Source of the DNA: CBDFMG01 sp965221205 [NCBI: bacterium]
GTDB lineage: Bacteria; SM23-31
Assembly: GCA_965221205.1 (NCBI GenBank)
Contig: OZ244870.1
Span: forward strand, 3,162,001-3,226,000
Length of the DNA: 64,000 nucleotides
Direction of reading: 5' to 3'
The notes under the pieces were generated by a model. That model had not been told where the DNA came from and made no database searches. It saw only the letters and a list, made by a program, of their open reading frames with translations. The position numbers and the translations under genes were made by a program. This document shows, piece by piece, positions 25,296-36,473 of this stretch. Within the stretch, counting starts at the first letter, position 1; each line of letters opens with the position of its first letter.

Positions 25296-25505
<210 letters not shown>

Positions 25506-25506
25506 T

Positions 25507-25947
25507 ATGGAAATGCTTAAACGAATTAGCGGCTTATTCTTATTTGTAATAGCGGCTGTGGTTGCAGTCCACACAATAGTTGAACCGCTCTATCACACCT
25601 CCAGAGAAGCACAGATGACAGCCCCGCTTTGGGCCGTCTTAGATCCGTTCATGGTGTTGGCGGTCGTGTTAGGCGTGATATTCGGGTGCATCCGTAAGAG
25701 AGCGGTTGACAGCGAAGAAGGCAGCGGGGCGATTACGCGCGAGTTCCTTGCCGCCAATACGCTGTTCTACGGATTCCTGTCCGTGGGCATCCTGTTACTC
25801 TGGAACTGGTTCAACGAGCTCAGTCCCGCATTCACCGCAGCAGGAGAGGATACAACCGCTCTCGTGTGGATACTCATCGATACTGCGCTGCCGCTGCTTT
25901 CGGGCACAATGGGGATATTCCTGCTGCGGGGCTGCTGCAGCAAATAG
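25507..25947 (+). CDS. small multi-pass membrane protein, family unknown
   Basis: A 146-residue protein from ATG 25507, chosen because GGAGGG lies 8-10 bp upstream; an upstream in-frame TTG at 25489 overlaps that site. Four membrane segments are visible: ISGLFLFVIAAVVAVHTIV, WAVLDPFMVLAVVLGVIFG, LAANTLFYGFLSVGILLLW and ALVWILIDTALPLLSGTMG; it ends LLRGCCSK. I do not recognise the family. Its first 37 residues recur, nearly identical, in a truncated copy at 28728. Both copies sit next to the island repeat, so the gene travels with it. Confidence 0.7.
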   Translation: MEMLKRISGLFLFVIAAVVAVHTIVEPLYHTSREAQMTAPLWAVLDPFMVLAVVLGVIFGCIRKRAVDSEEGSGAITREFLAANTLFYGFLSVGILLLWNWFNELSPAFTAAGEDTTALVWILIDTALPLLSGTMGIFLLRGCCSK

Positions 25948-26548
25948 ATGAGCGGACACTCAGAACAAGACGAGAAAGACGCCGCCGTGGAGATCACAAA
26001 CCCACGTCATTCCGGCAGTTGACCGATTCGTTCCTGAAATATAAAGCGGACGACGAACACCGACTTCTTTCTCTACGCCACAGCCATTAATTCTGTAAGG
26101 CAGCAAGCTCTTTATTTCGCCTTACAAGAGTTCTCGGCGACGACGGCCAATCGGCCGAAGATGCCTCTGAGAACGGCTTACACGAAGCAGCGGCACGGCA
26201 GGACGCTCAGCGCGAGAGAGATGATCGTTCTCGCGGATGGAAATGGTTCTACAATGACAACAGCGATTGCATACAGTTCCACGTTCCCGAACCCTCAAGC
26301 TCATTAGTCGTGAAGCCTGCGAACTGGTTTCGAGAACGCAAGGGGATTTATAGAAGTTGCGTGACCGCTATCGCTCGAACAGGACGCCATCCAGTTCCGG
26401 ATCAAACGCCTGCTGGAGCGCGCGCAGGCGCCGGGATGAAGAAAGGCACGCAAACGTTATGCGAGCCGAAAGTCCCTGCCCGCTTGACAGCTGCCTTTGT
26501 TCGACGAACTCGATGAGTGGACCGGTTCGCCGGAGCTGGAGATATGAA
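25948..26548 (+). pseudogene. decayed gene upstream of the ATPase
   Basis: Coding-like stretches in different frames follow the membrane gene: GWKWFYNDNSDCIQFHVP and LVVKPANWFRERKGIYRS (up to about 26365), then in another frame LEQDAIQFRIKRLLERAQAP (about 26371-26435), then LPLFDELDEWTGSPELEI ending at TGA 26546-26548, three bases before the ATPase ATG. This looks like one gene with several frameshifts, once translated directly ahead of the ATPase. The family is not recognised, so a role in the same system is only a guess. Confidence 0.45.
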
Positions 26549-26551
26549 GAT

Positions 26552-28099
26552 ATGAACGATTTAACCACACACGACACTCTTAAACTCGAAGTGGCGAATT
26601 TTGGGCCAATCGTCGAAGCCACGGTAGATCTGCGCCCGCTGACGGTGTTCGTAGGGCCCAGCAACACCGGAAAGTCTTACATGGCGATCCTTATCTATGC
26701 GCTGCATCGGTATTTCAGTAATGGAGACGGCCTAAGCCGTCTCCACAGATACCCGTCTCGCCGACTGCCTGAAAGTAAAGAACACACGCTGCCAAAAAAC
26801 GCAATTGACGATCTTTTCGCATGGGCGGAACAGGAATTCGAGATTTCAAAACAGAATTCGATATCCGGTATCAGGGAAATGGTTAAGGGAAAAAAACGTT
26901 TGAGTCTGCCCGGCTCCGTAATCAAATTGATTCAGTTCTTGTTCGATACACAGGGCGACCCGCTCAGTTTTGAGCTTTGCAGGTGTTTCGGATCCCACAT
27001 AGGTCAACTGATCCGGAAAGAGAGCAGGTCGGGGAGCCGGATCGTTGTTCGACGGCGGCTTTCGAACGATTCGGTTCGATTCGAAATTGAATTAACGCTC
27101 AAATCCCGAGAACAACGATTGAGATCAGCGGTTCCCGACAATCTCGAAATAGAAACTGACAGTAGCAAGATGACTCACTACGAGTTCCGCTATTTACTTG
27201 AGCGCTTATTCCTGCTCGAAAAACTTCGAAATGATGAAGCTGAGACACGAGACTTGCTTCAAACCCTGTTCGATCTTGCCCTGCCTCACCTTGTCGGTGC
27301 GCTGCATCATCCTGCCTTCTATCTTCCCGCTGGCCGAACCGGAGTGATGCATGCGCACAGTGTGGTCGTAAGTGCCTTGATTGAAAGCGCGGCAATGACT
27401 GGTCTGCGTCCGGCCGCACGCACGCCCATGCTCTCAGGTGTGCTGGCGGATTTTCTTGAACAATTGATCATGCTTGATAACCCCCAGCGCCGGCGTGGAA
27501 AATTCAGCTATGATTATGGCGCGCGGCGAATCGAAGACGCCATTCTTCGTGGATCCGTGCTGGTGGAAAAAGCGGAGACCGGCAGACATCCGCACTTCTT
27601 CTATCAGCCAGAGGGATCGGAAGTCAGTCTGCCATTGATGAACGTCTCGTCGATGGTTGCGGAACTCGCACCGGTCGTTCTTTATCTGCGCTACAGGGCC
27701 AAACCCCACAATGTGCTGATCGTTGAGGAACCGGAATCGCATTTGCACCCGGCCATGCAGGTCGAATTCACTCGTCAACTTGCGGCGCTCGTCCGGTCAG
27801 GCATACGGGTGATCGTCACCACGCACAGCGAATGGGTGCTTGAGGAACTTGCCAACATCGTGCAGCGACCCGAGCCTTCCGAGAAGGGGCGGAAGGAAGT
27901 CTCCGTCAGCGATATCGCACTTCGCCCGGAACAGGTGGGGGCGTGGCTGTTCAAACCCAAAACTCGCCCCAAAGGATCGGTGGTGGAGGAAATTCGTCTC
28001 GACAATTCCGGTCTTTACCCATCCGGCTTCGATGAGGTAGCGGCAGCGCTCCACAACGACTGGGCCGAGATTTCGAGCCGGGTCGGAGAGACCGAATGA
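26552..28099 (+). CDS. OLD-like AAA ATPase, putative defence effector/sensor
   Basis: A 515-residue ABC/SMC-type ATPase. From ATG 26552 (GGAG 10 bp upstream) it reads MNDLTTHDTLKLEVANFGPI, then Walker A FVGPSNTGKSYMA near residue 35. The C-terminal lobe has NVLIVEEPESHLHPAMQVEF (Walker B and D-loop) and IRVIVTTHSEWVLEELANIV (H-switch). The insert between the lobes is a long helical region (about 60-300). This is the 'predicted ATP-binding protein involved in recombination/OLD' type found in Septu, Gabija, retron and related defence systems. No TOPRIM domain follows; instead the stop overlaps the ATG of a small nuclease-like gene (ATGA at 28096), implying translational coupling. Confidence 0.82.
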   Translation: MNDLTTHDTLKLEVANFGPIVEATVDLRPLTVFVGPSNTGKSYMAILIYALHRYFSNGDGLSRLHRYPSRRLPESKEHTLPKNAIDDLFAWAEQEFEISKQNSISGIREMVKGKKRLSLPGSVIKLIQFLFDTQGDPLSFELCRCFGSHIGQLIRKESRSGSRIVVRRRLSNDSVRFEIELTLKSREQRLRSAVPDNLEIETDSSKMTHYEFRYLLERLFLLEKLRNDEAETRDLLQTLFDLALPHLVGALHHPAFYLPAGRTGVMHAHSVVVSALIESAAMTGLRPAARTPMLSGVLADFLEQLIMLDNPQRRRGKFSYDYGARRIEDAILRGSVLVEKAETGRHPHFFYQPEGSEVSLPLMNVSSMVAELAPVVLYLRYRAKPHNVLIVEEPESHLHPAMQVEFTRQLAALVRSGIRVIVTTHSEWVLEELANIVQRPEPSEKGRKEVSVSDIALRPEQVGAWLFKPKTRPKGSVVEEIRLDNSGLYPSGFDEVAAALHNDWAEISSRVGETE

Positions 28100-28575
28100 C
28101 GGGGTTGGTTGAGGCCGTTACCGCTAAGGTTAATGAGAGTTGCATAGTATCCAAAATGAAAAAAACTGGTTGTAAGGTTTCGCTCAAGAATGCACCCGAG
28201 CCGCGCCTGATCGTGGATTTCGACAAACCGGGATCACCGCTGGGGAAAAGTGAGACGCGCTGCGATTATCTCTTTGTCGCAAATGGTGAAAGATGCGCCG
28301 GTTGGATAGCCCCACTGGAACTGAAAAAAGGCAGCTTGGATGCTAACGAAGTAGCCAAACAGCTTCAGGCGGGGGCAAAGTTCGCGGAAGATGCCACGAA
28401 AGAGTTTTTTTCCCGGAAACAAAACGTGACGTTTCGCCCCATCGTCGCTCTTGCCGGCAGCACACGTAAGAGTCAAAGAGAAAGGCTAAAAAAAAATAAA
28501 GTGGAATTTTATGGCCATGTTGAGGTCATTCGGCGCATGAAGTGCGGCGCTTCACTGAAAAATGTGCTCCGCTGA
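28096..28575 (+). CDS. small PD-(D/E)XK nuclease-like partner of the ATPase
   Basis: A 159-residue protein whose start overlaps the ATPase stop by 4 bp. The central part reads RCDYLFVANGERCAGW followed by IAPLELKKGSLDANEVAKQL. An Asp, then E-L-K-K on the next strand, then a helix with a conserved-looking Gln matches the D...ExK...Q layout of PD-(D/E)XK nucleases. FRPIVALAGSTRKSQRERLK and IRRMKCGASLKNVLR complete a compact alpha/beta fold. I know of no name for this family. The genetic coupling suggests that ATPase and nuclease form one complex, a plausible two-gene antiphage system. The nuclease call is inference from motif layout. Confidence 0.62.
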   Translation: MTGLVEAVTAKVNESCIVSKMKKTGCKVSLKNAPEPRLIVDFDKPGSPLGKSETRCDYLFVANGERCAGWIAPLELKKGSLDANEVAKQLQAGAKFAEDATKEFFSRKQNVTFRPIVALAGSTRKSQRERLKKNKVEFYGHVEVIRRMKCGASLKNVLR

Positions 28576-28660
28576 TGACTGCAGCGGCAAAGAAAAAACT
28601 CATCGAGGTCGCCCTCCCGCTCGACGCGATCAACGCGGCGTCAGCTCGGGAGAAGTCGGT

Positions 28661-28838
28661 CCGCCATATAATCAACGACTTAGTTACCTATCACATGTAT
28701 AATCTTAAATTGAGGAGGGATGGAAATATGGAGATGTTTAAGCGAATTAGCGGCTTATTTCTTATTGTGATAGCGGCTGCGGTTGCAGTCCACACAATAG
28801 TTGAACCGCTCTATCACACCTCCAGCGAAGCACAGATG
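28661..28838 (+). repeat. island repeat, internal copy B
   Basis: CCGCCATATAATCAACGACT at 28661 matches the tRNA 3' end plus the start of copy A, so this copy keeps a few tRNA bases. It lacks the roughly 70-bp middle of A and C but carries the TTGAGGAGGGATGGAAATATG part and the first 37 codons of the membrane gene, breaking off at 28838. Confidence 0.75.
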
Positions 28839-28865
28839 TACAGTTCGCTTAAGGGATGGGCATAA
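28728..28865 (+). pseudogene. truncated second copy of the island membrane protein
   Basis: From ATG 28728 the frame reads MEMFKRISGLFLIVIAAAVA and VHTIVEPLYHTSSEAQM, matching residues 1-37 of the 25507 gene with few changes. It then diverges abruptly into YSSLKGWA and stops at 28865, three bases before the hsdM start. Only the first membrane segment remains. The break marks the junction with the restriction-modification module. Confidence 0.7.
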
Positions 28866-28867
28866 AG

Positions 28868-31013
28868 ATGGGCAACAGCGACCTGAACTGGATTGCGAAC
28901 TACATTTGGGGCATCGCCGACGGCGTTCTGCGCGATCTTTACGTCCGCGGCAAGTACCGCGACGTCATTCTTCCAATGACCGTGCTGCGCCGGCTTGATG
29001 CGGTGCTGGAAGACAGCAAGCAGGCCGTCCTTGACATGAAGGCCTCGCTCGACGCGGCGGGGCTGGTCGAACAGGACCCGGCGCTGCGGCAGGCAGCGGG
29101 ACAGGCGTTTTACAATACCTCGAAGTTCACCCTGCGTGACCTGAGAGCCCGCGCTAATCGACAGCAGCTTACGGCTGATTTTGAGGCCTACCTGGATGGG
29201 TTCTCGCCCAACGTGCAGGACATTCTCGACAACTTCGAGTTCCGCAACCAGGTCTCGCGGCTCTCCAAGGCCGACGCCATAGGCACGCTGATCGAGAAGC
29301 TCACCAGCCCTGACATCAACCTGAGCCCTGCCCCGGTGCAAAACGCCGACGGCTCCGTCCGGCATCCCGGCCTCGACAACCACGGCATGGGCTCGATCTT
29401 CGAGGAACTGGTGCGACGCTTCAACGAGGAGAACAACGAGGAAGCAGGCGAATACTGGACCCCGCGCGACGCCGTGGCACTCATGGCGAAGCTCGTCTTC
29501 CTGCCCGTCGCCGACGAGATAAAATCCGGCACCTATCTCCTCTACGACGGTGCCTGCGGCACCGGCGGCATGCTGACCGTGGCCGAGGAGACCCTTCGGC
29601 AGCTCGCAACCGAGCACGACAAGGACGTCGCCACCCACCTCTATGGCCAGGAGATCAACGCCGAGACTTATGCCATCTGCAAGGCCGACCTCCTGCTCAA
29701 GGGCGAGGGCGAAACCGCCGACAACATCGTGGGCGGCCCGGAACACTCCACACTTTCGAACGACGCCTTCCCGTCGCGCGAGTTCGACTTCATGCTCTCC
29801 AACCCGCCCTACGGCAAGAACTGGAAGACCGACCTGGAGCGCATGGGCGGCAAGAAGGACATGCGCGATCCGCGGTTCATGATCGAGCATGCGGGTGATC
29901 CAGAGTACTCCCTGGTTACCCGCTCGAGCGATGGCCAGATGCTCTTCCTCGCCAACAAGCTCTCCAAGATGAAGCAGGGCACGAAGCTCGGCAGCCGCAT
30001 CGCTGAGGTCCACAACGGCAGCTCCCTCTTCACCGGCGACGCCGGGCAGGGCGAGAGCAACATCCGCCGCTGGATCATCGAGAACGACTGGCTGGAGGCG
30101 ATCGTCGCCCTCCCCGCTCAACATGTTCTACAACACCGGCATCGCCACTTACGTGTGGGTGCTCACCAACCGCAAGCCCGAGCATCGCAAGGGCAAGGTA
30201 CAGTTGATCGACGCCACGCAGTGGTTCCGGCCTCTGCGCAAGAACCTGGGCAAGAAGAATTGCGAGTTCGGAGAGCAGGACATAACCCGCATTTGCGACA
30301 CGTTCCTCGCCTTCGAGGAGAGTGAGCAAAGCAAGATCTTCAACAACACCGCCTTTGGCTACTGGAAGGTGACCGTCGAGCGGCCGCTGCGCATCGCTGT
30401 CGATCTGTCGCCTGAACAACGCGCCCGCTTCCGCGCCGCATGCCGGGAAGCGCAGGAAGAGCCGATTGCAAACGTCGTCGACCGGGTGGCAGAAGCATTA
30501 GGCGCCGGACCTCATCTCGACTTCAATCGCTTCATGGCTGCCGTCAAAACGGACATCTCCGAGCATGGCGTCAACTTGACGGCCAAGCGAAACAAGCTGC
30601 TTCAGACATCGCTGGCGGCGCGGGACAAGACAGCCGAACCCGCCATCAAGAAGATCCACAATCTGGGCAGGATGGAGCCAGACCCAATCCGTGGGCTGGT
30701 CGAATCCACAGTAAAAGGCAAGTGCCGCGTGGTTGAGTACGAATCTGACAGCGAACTGCGGGACTCTGAACAGGTGCCGCTCCTAGAAGAAGGCGGCATA
30801 GAGGCATTCCTTCACCGCGAGGTTCTGCCCTACGCGGCGGACGCCTGGTATGTCCCAGACAGTGTCAAGATCGGCTACGAAATCAGCTTTACGCGGTACT
30901 TCTACAAGCCGAAGCCGATGCGCTCGCTGGAGGAGATACGAGCGGACATCCTAGCGCTGGAGATGGAGACGGAGGAACTGCTTAGCGAAATCATCGGGAA
31001 TGTCAACGGATAA
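28868..31013 (+). pseudogene. hsdM: type I restriction-modification DNA methyltransferase subunit, one frameshift
   Basis: A HsdM of about 715 residues in two frames. The first part, from ATG 28868, reads MGNSDLNWIANYIWGIADGV, then has the SAM motif YDGACGTGGML and the catalytic NPPY in LSNPPYGKNW. At about 30112-30120 the frame breaks: EAIVALP continues only in the +1 frame as NMFYNTGIATYVWVLTNRKP. One extra base (near 30116) explains it. The second part runs to 31013 with a C-terminal extension (RAFR-like DLSPEQRARFRAACREAQEE). An N6-adenine methyltransferase is expected if intact. The frameshift is either real inactivation or an assembly error; hsdS and hsdR are also shifted. ATG 28856 is a less likely start. 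Confidence 0.88.
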
Positions 31014-31016
31014 CAT

Positions 31017-31766
31017 ATGACGGGATTGAACAAGAACAAGCTACGTGAATATCTGAAATTAGCTATCTCGTTGCAGCGTGCAATGGAGACAATGCTACAG
31101 GCTGAAGGATTAGACAACATTTGGAAACACGGCGGATACGAGCAGTTTACACGCAAGTACATGCAAGTCATCAACCTCATGAGCAAGGAAATTCAACTGC
31201 CAAAAATCTTAGATTCTTACGACATTGAGAAGATGCCCGGACCTAACGATACGTTACCCTCCCAGCAGAAAGCGATCTTTGAGAGCGTTTATGCGAATTT
31301 GTCGATCTTACGAGCTTTTCTTGAAACAAAGATTGATATAGTTAATGACGAAATCCTTGTACTTCGTGATTTTCTCCAGTCTCGGCTGCGGAGTGCCATC
31401 TTTAGGGTGCCTAAGCACGAAAGAAACATTCAAGACACTATTGAGCAATTACTGATTGGCCGCGGAATGCAGAAAGGCCAGGACTATGATCGAGAAGTTG
31501 GGCGGGTAAAAATCTCAACGAAAGAGGTAGTGCCGGACTTCATCTTGCTTAAACTTTCACTTGCCGTGGAGATTAAGTTTGTCAAAAACGCTGAGCGTGC
31601 CAAGAAGATCGTAGATGAGATCAGTTCCGACATCGCTTCATACGCAAAGGTATACCGCCAACTACTTTTCGTGGTTTACGATCTTGGGCATATTCGAGAC
31701 GAGATTGAGTTCCGCCACGACCTCGAGAGAACGCCAAACGTCTCTGTTATTGTTATCAAGCACTAA
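31017..31766 (+). CDS. PD-(D/E)XK nuclease, DpnII/MboI-like, inside the hsd operon
   Basis: A 249-residue protein, intact. The N-terminal half is helical (LREYLKLAISLQRAMETMLQ). The C-terminal domain has VVPDFILLKLSLAVEIKFVK, a good PD-(x)10-ExK nuclease site, then EISSDIASYAKVYRQLLFVV, YDLGHIRDEIEF and SVIVIKH at the end, a pattern I associate with the REase_DpnII-MboI domain family. It starts 3 bp after hsdM and precedes hsdS. By eye it is less GC-rich than the hsd genes on both sides, suggesting separate acquisition. It may be an accessory restriction enzyme or a guard of the module; no direct evidence decides. Confidence 0.75.
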   Translation: MTGLNKNKLREYLKLAISLQRAMETMLQAEGLDNIWKHGGYEQFTRKYMQVINLMSKEIQLPKILDSYDIEKMPGPNDTLPSQQKAIFESVYANLSILRAFLETKIDIVNDEILVLRDFLQSRLRSAIFRVPKHERNIQDTIEQLLIGRGMQKGQDYDREVGRVKISTKEVVPDFILLKLSLAVEIKFVKNAERAKKIVDEISSDIASYAKVYRQLLFVVYDLGHIRDEIEFRHDLERTPNVSVIVIKH

Positions 31767-31823
31767 TGCACTGATGTGAATTTTCTTATGAAAGGAGTAA
31801 TGAGTTGCTGGTGAGAGTACTGG

Positions 31824-33319
31824 ATGATTGCGACTCCGGGTCAGGTATATGGTTTCGAGCAGCTAATGTTTGCTGATCTCAAACCCTACTACGCCTACAA
31901 ACCCTCCGGCGTCCTGTGGCTCGGCGATGTGCCGGAGCATTGGGAGATTCGCCGCGTACGAACGATTGCATCCGTAGTCAATGGGGGAACGCCGTCTTCC
32001 ATGATACGTTCTTACTGGGACGGCGGTATCGTCTGGCTTACGCCGCAGGACTTGGGGGCATTGGGCGACCGACGCGTCCAGACGAGTGGCCGGAGAATAA
32101 CGCGGGAAGGTTACGAAGCCTGCGGTGCCACGTTGGCGCCAGCCGATAGTGTTGCCATTTCTACGAGAGCACCTATCGGATACGTCGGGGTTCTCGGGAC
32201 CGCCGCGTGTACTAACCAAGGCTGTAGATTACTGGTTCCTAACGACTCTATTCAATCAGACTATCTCTACTATGGCATCAAGGTCGTTCGGCCGGAGCTG
32301 GAGTCGTTTGGCCAAGGAACTACTTTTGCCGAACTGTCCCGAGATAGACTTGCGGGGTTTCCCGTGACCCTGCCACCCCTCCCCGAACAAGCCACCATCG
32401 TTCGCTTTCTCGACCACGCCGACCGGCGCATCCGGCGCTACATCCGCGCCAAGCAGAAGCTGATTGCGCTGCTGGAGGAGCAGAAGCAGGCCCTCATCCA
32501 TCAGGCCGTCACGGGCCAGATCGACATCCGAACCGGCCGCCCATATCCGGCCTACAAGGACTCCGGGGTCGAGTGGCTGGGGGACGTGCCGGAGCATTGG
32601 AATACGCGGCCACTCAAGCGTTGGGTCACGATAAACGCTGAAGTACTGCCTGAGACGACCGCCCCTGACCGAGTCTTCCGTTACGTAGACATAGGTTCGG
32701 TTGGGACAGGGACTCTGACACAGGAAACACAATGGCTTCGCTTCGCTGGTGCTCCATCAAGAGCCCGTCGAGTGGTCCACAACGGTGACACACTCGTTTC
32801 GACTGTCAGAACCTACCTAAAGGCGATCTACTTCGTTGATGGAGAAACAGACGAATTAGTATGTTCGACGGGGTTCGCCGTCCTCACACCCCGTGTCGGC
32901 ACGGTTCCACAGTTTGTGAGCTACCTGGCTCGAAGCAATGCATTCACACAGATCAAGTCACGGCGAACTCCGTAGGGATAGCATATCCGGCGGTTGCTGA
33001 GAGTCGTCTCGGCTCATTTCATGTCGCAGTTCCACCCTTTCCCGAACAAACCGCCATCGTCCGATTCCTTGATGAAGCAGCTGCCGATATCGACGACACC
33101 ATTAACCGCACCCGCCGCCAAATCGTGTTGTGGCGCGAATACCGGACACGCCTGATCGCCGATGTGGTCACCGGCAAGCTCGACGTGCGCGAGGCTGCCG
33201 CCGGACTTCCCGAGGTCGATCCCCTCGCTGCCGACGACTACGTTGACGACAGGTTCGACGCAAACGCTGCGTCGGAGATCGACGAACTCGACACGAGACT
33301 CGAAGAGGCGGAGGCATGA
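31824..33319 (+). pseudogene. hsdS: type I restriction specificity subunit, one frameshift
   Basis: A HsdS of about 495 residues. Two target-recognition domains each follow a repeated motif: PSGVLWLGDVPEHWEIRRV near residue 30 and KDSGVEWLGDVPEHWNTRPL near 245. The conserved helices follow at PPLPEQATIVRFLDHADRRI and PPFPEQTAIVRFLDEAAADI. The frame is lost at about 32945-32951, where a CACACA tract stands where CACA would keep the frame (NAFT...DQVTANSVGIAYPA). The remaining part to 33319 is in the new frame and overlaps hsdR by ATGA. The start may be ATG 31824 or ATG 31869 (MFADLKPY). It gives DNA sequence specificity to the complex if intact. Confidence 0.85.
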
Positions 33320-36300
33320 CCACGGACACCTCCGAGCAAGGCCTCGAACGCCTCATCTGCACGGCGCTGGCCGGTCATCCCTGCGATCCACACCCACGGC
33401 GGACACGATAGGCGAGCCGCCCGCCGGCTATGGCGGCGTGGGCTGGAGCGGCGGCAACTACCACGACTACGACCGTGAGTACTGCGTTGATCTGGTCCAG
33501 CTTGCGGCCTTCCTGCACACTACCCAGCCCGAGGCAGCCGAATCGCTGGGGCTGTCCGAGAACGGTCCAACACGGCGCAAGTTCCTGGCCCGGCTGCAGG
33601 GCGAGATATCCAAGCGCAGCACCATCGACGTTCTACGCCACGGCATCAAGCACGGGGCGCATGATCTGGACCTGTTCTACGGCACGCCGTCCGCCGGGAA
33701 CGAGAAGGCAAAAGAACGCTTCGAGCAGAACAGCTTCACCGTCACCCGGCAGCTTCGCTACAGCCGTGACGAGGCACAGCGGGCGCTGGACATCGGACTC
33801 TTCATAAACGGCCTGCCGGTCTTCACCTTCGAACTGAAGAACAGCCTCACCAAACAGACAGTGAGCGATGCGGTCTGGCAGTACAAGAAGGACCTCAACC
33901 CGCGCGAGAAGCTCTTCTTGTTCGGCCGCTGCGTAACCCACTTCGCGGTGGACGAGAGCGAGGTGCGCTTCTGCACCCAACTCAAGGGGAAGGGGTCGTG
34001 GTTCCTGCCGTTCAACCACGGCTGGAACGACGGCGCGGGCAATCCGCCTAACCCGGACGGGATCAAAACCGATTACCTGTGGCGCGACGTGCTGACCCGC
34101 GCGAGCCTGACCAACATCCTGGAGAACTACGCCCAGGTGGTGGAGTCGAAAGACGAGAAGACGGGCAGGAAGAAAAAGACCCAGATCTGGCCCCGCTACC
34201 ACCAGCTCGACGTGGTACGCCGGCTGCTGGCCGATGCCGAAGCGCACGGAGCGGGCAAACGCTATCTGGTCCAGCACTCAGCAGGCAGCGGCAAGAGCAA
34301 TTCCATCGCCTGGCTGGCCCATCAACTGATCGGGCTGGTGAAGGATGACGCCCCGGTCTTCGACTCTATCATCGTGGTCACCGACCGGCGCATCCTCGAT
34401 AAGCAAATCCGCGACACGATCAAGCAGTACGCACAGGTCGGCGCGACGGTGGGGCACGCGGAGCGTTCGGGCGATCTGCGCCGGTTCATCGAAACCGGCA
34501 AGAAGATTATCATCTCGACCGTGCAGAAGTTCCCCTTCATCCTCGACGAGATCGGCAACGAGCAGCGCGGGCGGCGCTTTGCCATCATTATCGATGAGGC
34601 TCACTCGAGCCAGGGCGGCCGCACCAGCGCGGCCATGGGCCAGGCGCTCTCCAAGGCCGGTGAAGCGGGTGAAGAGGAAACCTACGAGGATCAGATCAAC
34701 CGCCAGATGGAGTCGCGCAAGCTACTCCCCAACGCCAGCTACTTCGCGTTCACCGCAACGCCCAAGAACAAGACGCTGGAGATCTTCGGCGACCCGGATC
34801 CGCAGCCCGACGGCACGGTCAGGCATCACGCCTTTCACAGCTACAGCATGAAGCAGGCGATTCAGGAGGGGTTCATCCTGGACGTGCTCGAGCACTACAC
34901 GCCGGTTGAAAGCTACTACAAACTCGCCAAGACGGTGGAGGGCGACCCGGAGTTTGATGTCAAGAAAGCCCAGAAAAAGCTCCGGCGCTTCGTCGAGGGC
35001 CACGACCACGCAATCCGACTCAAAGCCGAGATCATGGTGGACCACTTCCACGACCAGGTGCTGGCCCAGGGCAAGATCGGTGGTGAAGCGCGGGCGATGG
35101 TGGTCACCAACGGCATCGAGCGCGCAATCCAGTATTTTCACGCCATCCGCGGCTACCTCAAGGAACGCAAGAGCCGGTACCAGGCCATCGTCGCCTTCTC
35201 CGGCGAGCACGAGTTCGGCGGGGCGAAGGTCAGCGAGGCGTCGCTGAACGGTTTTCCGTCCGGCAAGATCGACGAGAGGATCCAGGAGGATCCCTACCGC
35301 TTCCTGATCTGTGCGGACAAGTTCCAGACCGGATACGACGAGCCACTGCTGCACACGATGTACGTGGACAAGATCCTTTCGGGCATCAAGGCGGTGCAGA
35401 CCTTGTCGCGCCTCAACCGGGCGCATCCCAAGAAGCACGATGTCTTCGTGCTGGATTTTCTGAACGACGCCGATACCATCCGCGACTCTTTTGCCGACTT
35501 CTATCGCGCGACGATTCTGGCCGATGAGACCGACCCCAACAAACTGCATGACCTGCAGGCGGATCTGGATGGCGCTCAGGTCTATTCCGCCAAGCAGATC
35601 GACGACCTTGTGGAGCGCTATCTCAGCGAGGCAGAACGCGAGCAGCTCGATCCCATCCTCGACGCCTGCGTGGCGGTCTATTTGAGCGTTCTGGACGAAG
35701 ACGGGCAGGTGGAGTTCAAGGGCAAGGCCAAGGGGTTCGTACGAACCTACGGCTTCTTATCCTCCGTCCTTCCCTACACCAACGCCGCCTGGGAGAAGCG
35801 CTCGATATTTTTGAATTTCCTGGTCTCGAAACTGCCGGCACCTCAAGAGGAGGATCTGTCCAAAGGTATTCTCGATGCCATTGACATGGACAGCTACCGG
35901 GTCGAGAAGCGGGCGATGCAGAAGATCATCCTGTCCGACGAGGACGCCGAGATCGAGCCTGTGCCGACCAGCGGCGGAGGTCACCGCCCTGAACCAGAGC
36001 TGGATCGGCTCTCGAACATCCTCAAGGTCTTCAACGAACACTTCGGCGACATTCCCTGGGAAGACGCCGACCGCGTGCGGCAGCTCATCACCGAAACCAT
36101 TCCTTCCCGGGTGGCGGTAGACACTGCGTTCAAGAACGCTCGGCAGAACTCGGATAAGGAGAACGCACGCATAGAACACGACAAAGCCCTGCAACGAGTC
36201 ATGATATCTTTGATGAAGGACGACACCGAGCTGTTCAAGCAATTCATGGACAACGAGGGCTTCAAGCGGTGGATGACCGATACAGTGTTCGGGCTTGCTT

Positions 36301-36323
36301 ACGAGCCGCCAAGTGCGCCCTGA
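33316..36323 (+). pseudogene. hsdR: type I restriction endonuclease subunit, frameshift near the N-terminus
   Basis: HsdR of about 1000 residues. ATG 33316 overlaps the hsdS stop and gives MTTDTSEQGLERLICTALAG, the normal HsdR start, but this frame ends at 33408. The rest is in another frame, beginning PTADTIGEPPAGYGGVGWSG. A 2-base CA excess at 33388-33395 explains the break. The body is intact: nuclease motif PVFTFELKNSLTKQT, helicase Walker A QHSAGSGKSNSIAW, DEAH box IIDEAHSSQGG, motif III AFTATPKNKTLEIFG, and DRRILDKQIRDTIKQ. Helicase and coupling domains run to the end at 36323. Function requires correction of this shift. Confidence 0.88.
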
Positions 36324-36355
36324 CTCACGCTCGAAGCTGGATGAGACGATCGACA

Positions 36356-36473
36356 CCATATAATCAACGACTTATTTACCTGTCATGTCTAATCTCAGGG
36401 GTGTTGTGGGGCTGTTTGGGCTTGAGTTGGACATGATGGAAATCTTGATTCAAAAATTGAGGAGGGTTGGAAA
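36356..36473 (+). repeat. island-flanking direct repeat, copy C (right)
   Basis: Begins CCATATAATCAACGACTTA, 33 bp after the hsdR stop, and matches copy A for about 118 bp. After GGAGGGTTGGAAAAATA it leaves the match, and no membrane-protein gene follows. The five bases before it (CGACA) do not match the tRNA end. The rest of the spacer, to the LacI gene at 36734, holds nothing I recognise. Confidence 0.85.

What the first reader, a model, noticed from the sequence alone, without database searches (positions are those of the whole stretch)
26552..28575. Candidate undescribed two-gene system: OLD-like ATPase coupled to a small ExK nuclease-like protein
The ATPase has intact Walker A (FVGPSNTGKS), Walker B (LIVEEPESH) and H-switch (TTHSEW), but no TOPRIM. 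Its stop overlaps the start of a 159-residue protein with a D...ELKKG...Q arrangement typical of PD-(D/E)XK nucleases. ATPase plus small nuclease is the architecture of Septu-like defence, but PtuB is an HNH protein and this one is not. Both genes are intact in an island where the RM genes are damaged, suggesting continued selection.
Basis: partly seen in the sequence, partly recalled or inferred. Interest (0 to 1): 0.72.

Follow-up and report, generated by a model that had tools for sequence, protein, structure and literature searches.

The report
Divergent ATPase-nuclease pair, common in Poribacteria
Two overlapping genes encode an ATP-using protein and a small enzyme predicted to cut DNA or RNA; the pair is a distant branch of an already described kind of bacterial anti-virus system, and it is unusually common in Poribacteria, a phylum known from marine sponges.

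Summary
In detail: a 515-aa OLD-type ABC ATPase without TOPRIM (26552-28099) overlaps by ATGA a 159-aa protein (28096-28575). AlphaFold2 gives the small protein a confident PD-(D/E)XK-like fold (pLDDT 94); D57, E75, K77 and Q89 are kept in 35-38 of 38 family rows. The pairing is real: 44 of 45 near relatives of the ATPase have the nuclease directly downstream, and 114 of 116 strong nuclease hits in Poribacteria have the ATPase just upstream.

"Undescribed" is not supported. ATPase plus PD-(D/E)XK nuclease is published as PD-T4-4, WonAB and "OLD-ABC ATPase + novel REase"; PADLOC holds candidate PDC-M47. Profile comparison links both proteins to that group (ATPase E 6.6e-50, nuclease E 7.4e-13), but the window pair lies on a separate branch whose nuclease PADLOC barely sees (best E 0.0011).

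New here is the distribution: 61 of 84 genomes in the phylum of a Poribacteria MAG, up to six adjacent pairs each, against 1-4 of 84 in three other phyla. In 3 of 45 loci the pair sits between HmaA- and HmaB-like genes.

Most likely function: an ATPase-controlled nuclease that aborts phage infection (inferred from kin, untested).

The parts
26552..28099 (+). OLD-type ABC ATPase, 515 aa, no TOPRIM; presumed sensor/regulator
   Evidence: Pfam AAA_15 1.9e-21; PADLOC PD-T4-4_A 9.5e-36, PDC-M47A 9e-28; AF2 pLDDT 79.4, pTM 0.85; structure matches to SMC/Rad50/PtuA heads, Z up to 19.7 over 291 residues, rmsd 4.6
28096..28575 (+). small PD-(D/E)XK-like nuclease, 159 aa; D57, E75, K77, Q89; presumed effector
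   Evidence: AF2 pLDDT 94.1, pTM 0.90; structural rows led by Can2 8bao Z 7.6, rmsd 3.5, 126 residues; conserved residues; only PDC-M47B 0.0011 in PADLOC
25296..25389 (+). tRNA-Ser (GCT), probable insertion site of the segment
   Evidence: ARAGORN, Rfam tRNA 58.3 bits
25387..25617 (+). repeat copy 1: tRNA CCA end, leader, first codons of small membrane gene
   Evidence: direct repeats D1-D4, exact 19-mer
28660..28843 (+). repeat copy 2: truncated copy of leader and membrane gene start, after the pair
   Evidence: 93% over 138 nt to copy 1; exact 19-mer at 28664
36352..36473 (+). repeat copy 3: leader only, after the type I RM genes
   Evidence: 95% over 119 nt to copy 1; exact 19-mer at 36356
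25489..25947 (+). small membrane-like protein (152 aa) between tRNA and pair; not part of the conserved pair
   Evidence: no Pfam family at its curated cut-off; no relative among 288 neighbour ORFs

Best explanation
The two genes are one operon encoding an OLD-family ABC ATPase and its dedicated PD-(D/E)XK nuclease, a divergent branch of the published OLD-ABC + PD-(D/E)XK dyads (PD-T4-4, PDC-M47, WonAB). Shown here: genes, motifs, predicted folds, strict pairing, kinship to the dyads by profile. Inferred: the ATPase dimerises in the ABC manner and binds the nuclease (in published WonAB modelling, through its C-terminal extension); it controls the nuclease and, on a sign of infection, uses ATP to license it; the nuclease then cuts nucleic acid of the infected cell (tRNA/rRNA or DNA) and the infection aborts. 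In a few genomes the module is carried inside Hma-like (DUF499 BREX-related) loci, probably as a back-up effector.
For: Pairing: 44 of 45 near relatives have the nuclease directly downstream (43, L089; L093 has none); 114 of 116 strong nuclease places in Poribacteria have an ATPase match within 600 nt upstream, 112 of them within 73 nt. ATPase and nuclease distances agree: Mantel r 0.78, p 1e-4, 31 pairs; 0.61, p 1e-4, 26 pairs without Poribacteria. Kinship, with window proteins left out of the known side: ATPase hhalign probability 100, E 6.6e-50, 441 columns; nuclease probability 97.8, E 7.4e-13, 78 columns around the catalytic core. All 33 ATPase rows hit PD-T4-4_A at E<=0.001. Folds. Mechanism by analogy: WonAB needs both proteins, the ATPase motifs and nuclease K71; it aborts infection and stops translation (PMC12137116, section 7 and passages). 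OLD-ABC + nuclease dyads in BREX and Hma (BR) loci are read as back-up effectors (PMC12839542, passages); here 3 of 45 loci have the pair between HmaA- and HmaB-like genes.
Against: No activity of this branch has been tested. Nuclease similarity to known partners is weak one to one (PDC-M47B 0.0011; 16 of 38 rows hit that model at E<=0.01, 1 of 38 hits PD-T4-4_B). Foldseek alone gave no PDB match at E<=0.001, and Z 7.6 is below the tool's caution line of 8. Defence genes were seen beside only a minority of relatives. Presence in 61 of 84 Poribacteria-phylum genomes is higher than I would expect (from general knowledge) of a patchy defence system.
Confidence: 0.72

Rival explanations
1. Same dyad, but the nuclease is a true restriction factor that cuts invading DNA, and the branch depends on a partner's DNA modification (type I RM in the window, Hma elsewhere).
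For: The window pair lies beside hsdM-hsdS-hsdR; in L056, L073, L075 it lies between HmaA- and HmaB-like genes, the HmaB frame overlapping the nuclease's end in all three; L071 has a type IIG/DrmMI-like gene 274 nt downstream on the other strand.
Against: Methylase-like neighbours were seen in only a minority of the 45 loci. In the window the RM genes have a different base composition (GC3 0.62-0.85 against 0.53-0.58) and their own repeat boundary, so they are probably separate arrivals.
Confidence: 0.15
2. The pair is not chiefly anti-phage in its main hosts: in Poribacteria it is a common multi-copy function (for example plasmid conflict, or a structure-specific repair nuclease with an SMC/Rad50-like head).
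For: 61 of 84 genomes have nuclease matches, 55 of 84 hold 1-6 adjacent pairs; the ATPase model resembles SMC and Rad50 heads as well as PtuA.
Against: In four other phyla sampled it is rare; frames with stops occur; kin by profile are defence dyads.
Confidence: 0.1
3. Toxin-antitoxin pair: the ATPase merely neutralises the nuclease.
For: Two overlapping genes; tandem copies in L082.
Against: In WonAB the nuclease is toxic only when the ATPase is present and active (PMC12137116, passages); the ATPase keeps the Walker A lysine, both Walker B glutamates and the H-loop histidine in 33 of 33 rows.
Confidence: 0.03

Closest known systems
PD-T4-4 (E. coli; PADLOC PD-T4-4_A/B)
   Same: ATPase gene then nuclease gene; AAA_15 ATPase, PD-(D/E)XK partner (table in PMC10952713, passages); best named hit of the ATPase; profile kinship
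   Different: 22-25% identity of the ATPase to the six relatives in alignment A2; separate branch (SH-aLRT 99); partner 176-210 aa in the eight loci seen against 159, and hardly hit by PD-T4-4_B models
PDC-M47 (PADLOC candidate)
   Same: ATPase E 9e-28; its B model is the only one that touches P0002, at 0.0011
   Different: Weak nuclease score; no paper found under this name in the open-licence library
WonAB (V. cholerae WASA-1 prophage)
   Same: OLD-ABC ATPase plus PD-(D/E)xK nuclease operon (PMC12137116, section 7 and passages)
   Different: Sequences not compared here; that paper says the related ATPases differ in their inserts and C-terminal extensions
OLD-ABC ATPase + novel REase (in silico family cited in PMC12137116)
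   Same: The class to which this pair most naturally belongs
   Different: The original survey (PMC7544218) is not held, so the subgroup was not checked
Septu (PtuAB)
   Same: ABC ATPase of the same fold (PtuA 8eea Z 17.8, rmsd 4.7, 307 residues), small nuclease partner
   Different: Partner is HNH in Septu, PD-(D/E)XK-like here
PARIS, Gabija, OLD
   Same: OLD-family ATPase
   Different: Those use a TOPRIM nuclease; none found here by Pfam

Membership tests
OLD-ABC + PD-(D/E)XK dyads (PD-T4-4 / PDC-M47 / WonAB group) | OLD-type ABC ATPase with Walker A, Walker B and H-loop, no TOPRIM | tested here: met
OLD-ABC + PD-(D/E)XK dyads (PD-T4-4 / PDC-M47 / WonAB group) | PD-(D/E)XK nuclease encoded directly downstream | tested here: met
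   predicted fold; profile kinship; pairing
OLD-ABC + PD-(D/E)XK dyads (PD-T4-4 / PDC-M47 / WonAB group) | anti-phage activity needing both proteins and both active sites | not testable with these tools
   known for WonAB (PMC12137116), untested for this branch
PD-T4-4 or PDC-M47 in the narrow sense | nuclease recognised by the system's own B model | tested here: inconclusive
   P0002: PDC-M47B 0.0011, no PD-T4-4_B; 16 of 38 and 1 of 38 rows at E<=0.01
PD-T4-4 or PDC-M47 in the narrow sense | ATPase falls inside the PD-T4-4/M47 clade | tested here: not met
   33 branch rows and 17 PD-T4-4/M47-like rows lie on opposite sides of a branch, SH-aLRT 99 (quick tree, groups chosen beforehand by identity; 4 of the 17 were named by PADLOC, the rest assigned by similarity)
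WonAB in the narrow sense | direct kinship to WonA and WonB | not tested
   WonA/WonB sequences not fetched
Septu | HNH nuclease PtuB | tested here: not met
   no HNH family in Pfam for P0002; PD-(D/E)XK-like fold
OLD / Gabija / PARIS | TOPRIM domain in the ATPase or its partner | tested here: not met
   no TOPRIM in either protein by Pfam at E<=1
Hma (DUF499 BREX-related) | HmaA helicase and HmaB methylase in the locus | tested here: not met
   window neighbours are type I RM genes; in 3 of 45 related loci (L056, L073, L075) both are present, HmaC not looked for

The most novel reading that the evidence does not exclude
A separate type of ATPase-nuclease immune module adapted to sponge-symbiont communities: common and multi-copy in Poribacteria, spread over at least eight phyla, sometimes inserted beside tRNA genes and sometimes built into Hma loci, where one phylum keeps several diverged copies so as to sense different phage triggers.
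Probability: 0.3. Interest if true: 0.7.

Novelty: new variant of a known kind. Interest (0 to 1): 0.5.

Why it matters
The defence models tested (PADLOC 2.0.0) only half-see this pair: the ATPase looks like PD-T4-4, the nuclease is nearly missed. A system found in 61 of 84 sampled genomes of the Poribacteria phylum, often repeatedly, is therefore likely under-counted. A dyad kept in up to six adjacent pairs per genome is a ready test of whether OLD-ABC sensors diversify to recognise different phage triggers.

Tried and rejected
Considered and rejected: Septu (no HNH); OLD, Gabija, PARIS (no TOPRIM); chance motif in the small protein (conservation and fold); 'part of the type I RM system' (own repeat boundary, different GC3, no relatives of the window's RM genes among neighbours).

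Led nowhere: P0002 has no match in the plasmid (E<=0.01) or phage (E<=1) records and no relative in viral contigs by peptide patterns. P0001 matches 35 plasmid and 3 phage records, none over 80% of its length, and its single-sequence scan of viral contigs found no relative. PDB sequence search with the nuclease and its profile gave only weak unrelated hits. Foldseek of the nuclease against PDB and viral models gave none at E<=0.001. NCBIfam, PHROGs and Rfam added nothing on the nuclease. The host of the window was not identified: no genome is held, and its MgsA protein is at most 52% identical to those in 20 genomes of several phyla, apart from a 55% partial match. The PD-T4-4_B model in Poribacteria gave 0 of 84 but also rang in none of the 14 control genomes, so it shows no absence. 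The promoter and terminator scan was no better than shuffles. OLD or Gabija chains were not among the 50 structural rows shown for the ATPase; that excludes nothing. The survey of ABC ATPases was not found by search and is not held. Comparison A3 against A1 is not used, because P0002 is in both.

Against a general tRNA-insertion reading: flanking direct repeats were found in 2 (L060, L095) of the 42 related loci with enough flank, and a tRNA in 3 of 45 loci (L060, L067, L070). L095 was not resolved.

Dropped rows: plasmid locus L009 has a DUF3696 ATPase with a 315-aa partner and was not used; of the viral loci L010-L054 none was used further, and many from L027 on have partners of about 280-300 aa, a different kind. 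L006 and L007 were used for their partner proteins only.

In the larger phylum searches at most 9-19 candidates per genome were scored, so I repeated three at n=84, where at most 45 were scored and nearly all were. Each centre genome was chosen because its locus had matched, and it counts in its tally. The family profile holds 7 Poribacteria rows of 38, which favours that phylum. One search used the 116 strongest places (E<=3e-32); weaker, mostly fragmentary places were dropped; the ATPase list was cut by the tool and scored at most 17 candidates per genome. Of the 2 unpaired places one begins 322 nt from its contig's start; the other (G267:C240) is unexplained. Neighbour set A7 held 113 of 138 ORFs selected; only the 25 commonest families are shown of 146 (Pfam) and 94 (PADLOC). 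Of 21 larger near ORFs 14 were scanned and 7 were not (L061, two of L072, L077, L081, L088, L098).
Full report
WHAT IS THERE. The finding's coordinates are right. P0001 is a 515-aa ATPase at 26552-28099 and P0002 a 159-aa protein at 28096-28575, overlapping in ATGA. P0001 matches AAA_15 (1.9e-21) and AAA_21 (9.9e-15) and no TOPRIM; P0002 has no Pfam match at E<=1. PADLOC ranks PD-T4-4_A (9.5e-36) and PDC-M47A (9e-28) first for P0001; P0002 has one weak hit, PDC-M47B 0.0011.

THE PAIR IS CONSERVED. The first 45 (L055-L099) are near relatives, up to 53% identical over nearly the full length. In 44 of 45 a relative of P0002 follows directly: 43 found and L089; L093 has none. In 28 of the 43 the genes overlap by 1 or 4 bases. 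Some copies are broken: the ATPase lies in more than one frame in L062, L067, L080, L088, L097 and L098, and the nuclease is short (under 110 aa) in L067, L072, L080 and the third L082 unit; sequencing error cannot be told from decay. Pairwise distances of the two proteins agree (Mantel r 0.78, p 1e-4, 31 pairs; 0.61, p 1e-4, 26 pairs without Poribacteria). More distant relatives on seven plasmids and in one phage (L001-L008) show the same order, ATPase then a protein of 176-210 aa; a ninth locus, L009, is different.

THE SMALL PROTEIN HAS A PD-(D/E)XK-LIKE FOLD. AlphaFold2 with the 38-row alignment gives pLDDT 94.1 and pTM 0.90. In the second-look structural comparison the leading rows are, as I know these entries, PD-(D/E)XK nucleases: Can2 8bao Z 7.6 (rmsd 3.5, 126 residues), Can1 6sce 6.8 (3.0, 107), Cdn1 8z4i 6.6 (3.0, 106), Card1 6xl1 5.9 (3.9, 124), BsmI 9f38 5.7, Bse634I 3v1z 5.5, EndoMS 5gke 5.2, FokI 2fok 5.0, Hjc 2wiz 4.4; a few unrelated rows (acetyl-CoA carboxylase, 4.9) are mixed in lower down. 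That Z range alone is not decisive by the tool's own note, and Foldseek gave nothing at E<=0.001, but the leading rows agree with one another and with the motif. D57, E75, K77 and Q89 are present in 36, 38, 37 and 35 of 38 rows. The branch also has conserved cysteines: C26 in 38 of 38, C56 and C150 in 36 of 38 each, C16 in 28, and one in 27 of 38 that P0002 lacks; a metal site is possible, not shown.

THE ATPASE. K41, R262, S366, E392, E393 and H425 are invariant in 33 of 33 rows. The model (pLDDT 79.4, pTM 0.85) matches SMC, Rad50 and PtuA/retron ATPase heads: 204 Foldseek matches at E<=0.001, best 2.1e-10; Z 19.7 to an SMC head (291 residues, rmsd 4.6) and 17.8 to PtuA 8eea (307 residues, rmsd 4.7). 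The SMC rows rank a little higher, so the fold alone does not name the OLD family; PADLOC, profile and motif do.

PLACE AMONG KNOWN SYSTEMS. The profiles on the known side leave the window proteins out. ATPase branch against PD-T4-4/M47-like ATPases: probability 100, E 6.6e-50, 441 columns. Nuclease branch against their partners: probability 97.8, E 7.4e-13, 78 columns around the catalytic core. In a tree of 50 ATPases the 33 branch rows and the 17 others lie on opposite sides of a branch with SH-aLRT 99. The groups were set beforehand by identity, several outer rows are long, and only four of the 17 (L001-L004) were named by PADLOC. All 33 ATPase rows hit PD-T4-4_A at E<=0.001, but 16 of 38 nucleases hit the best B model at E<=0.01 and 1 of 38 hits PD-T4-4_B. 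So: same kind, different branch.

LITERATURE. PMC10952713 (passages) lists PD-T4-4 under AAA_15 and under PD-(D/E)XK nuclease. [quoted passage not shown] PMC12839542 (passages) reports 594 taxa with OLD-ABC ATPases paired with HNH, PD-(D/E)XK or PIN nucleases in BREX and BR loci, and equates Hma with DUF499-centred BR systems. PMC8565338 (passages) named Hma. A search for 'PDC-M47' found no paper.

CONTEXT. Among 113 neighbour ORFs the commonest Pfam families are TPR repeats and Gfo/Idh/MocA oxidoreductases, in 5 ORFs each, and no RM family is among the 25 shown of 146. The PADLOC models shown (25 of 94) hit one or two ORFs each. No window RM gene has a relative among 288 neighbour ORFs. L056, L073 and L075 have an HmaA-like helicase just upstream and an HmaB-like methylase whose frame overlaps the nuclease's end; their titles are Rhodobacter, Gammaproteobacteria and Dehalococcoidia MAGs. 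L071 has a type IIG/DrmMI-like and L066 a mad3-like protein nearby. So the module mostly appears alone and is sometimes part of a larger locus.

DISTRIBUTION. With the nuclease profile at E<=1e-6: phylum of the Poribacteria MAG L090, 61 of 84 genomes, up to 7 matches each; phylum of a Latescibacteria MAG, 15 of 64; of a Chloroflexota MAG, 14 of 301. At n=84: Acidobacteria MAG 4 of 84, Pseudomonadales MAG 1 of 84, Brumimicrobium 1 of 84; the larger samples gave 4 of 199, 1 of 398 and 8 of 395. The single hits are the centre genomes themselves. Of the four Acidobacteria hits fetched, three have the ATPase beside the nuclease and one, weak, shows neither protein by tblastn. Of the 116 strongest Poribacteria places 114 have an ATPase match just upstream, and 55 genomes hold 1-6 such pairs. 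Sponge link: 13 of 45 near loci come from 'jk18x' bins, a series that PMC9531527 places in Ircinia sponges (passages), against 1 of 35 distant loci of the same scan (Fisher p 0.002). Counting also p16x, CAR, RHO, COS and APA bins it is 28 of 45 against 2 of 35 (p 1e-7; counts made by hand from titles); that these prefixes mean sponges is my inference, partly from the species sampled in PMC8163846 (passages), where the codes CAR and RHO do not occur. Related rows are not independent. Branch rows come from eight phyla by title. Pseudomonadota (8 rows) need 7 changes on the tree, as many as shuffled labels, but Poribacteria and Binatota are single clades and all labels together are more clustered than shuffles (12 changes against 19.1), so there is both spread and inheritance. 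Sponge-associated MAGs are reported as rich in CRISPR and RM genes (PMC8163846, abstract passage; PMC5099237, listing only).

THE WINDOW LOCUS. A tRNA-Ser(GCT) ends at 25389. An exact 19-mer starting at its CCA recurs at 28664, after the pair, and at 36356, after the RM genes; longer copies are 92-96% alike. GC3 is 0.38-0.46 in five flanking genes, 0.53-0.58 in the pair and 0.62-0.85 in the RM genes. I read this as two separate arrivals beside one tRNA gene; no integrase was found among the eight ORFs scanned there. L060 is similar: the pair lies between partial copies of DNA around a tRNA-Gly and the start of the next gene. This is not general: 2 of 42 loci tested have flanking repeats.

VERDICT. 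The function is inferred from kin.

Noticed in passing
window 25296-36473: tRNA-Ser with attachment-like repeats: exact 19-mer at 25387, 28664, 36356, dividing the region into a pair segment and a type I RM segment of different GC3.
   Followed up: partly
window 28856-36323: Type I RM cassette with hsdM in two frames and an extra DpnII-MboI-like nuclease gene (31017-31766, Pfam 6.3e-12; PADLOC Aga_Helical-REase 3.1e-8) between hsdM and hsdS.
   Followed up: no
window 25489-25947 and 28707-28843: A small membrane-like protein gene of unknown family directly after the tRNA; the first 40 or so codons recur after the pair.
   Followed up: partly
L056, L073, L075: Pair embedded between HmaA-like helicase and HmaB-like methylase genes in MAGs of three groups.
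   Followed up: partly
L082 1-7850: Three ATPase-nuclease units within 8 kb in Thioalkalivibrio sp. HK1, the first cut by the locus end and the third with a short nuclease.
   Followed up: no
Poribacteria-phylum genomes (unnamed handles): 23 of 84 genomes have no match, several of them adjacent in the list, perhaps a different lineage or lifestyle.
   Followed up: no
L060 5148-5284 and 9222-9517: Partial duplicates around a tRNA-Gly and the start of the next gene flank the pair, similar to the window.
   Followed up: partly
L095, about 3 kb either side of the pair: Direct repeats of 211 nt (86%) and 140 nt (91%) between the two flanks.
   Followed up: no
P0002 C16, C26, C56, C150: Cysteines conserved in this branch; possible metal site.
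   Followed up: no
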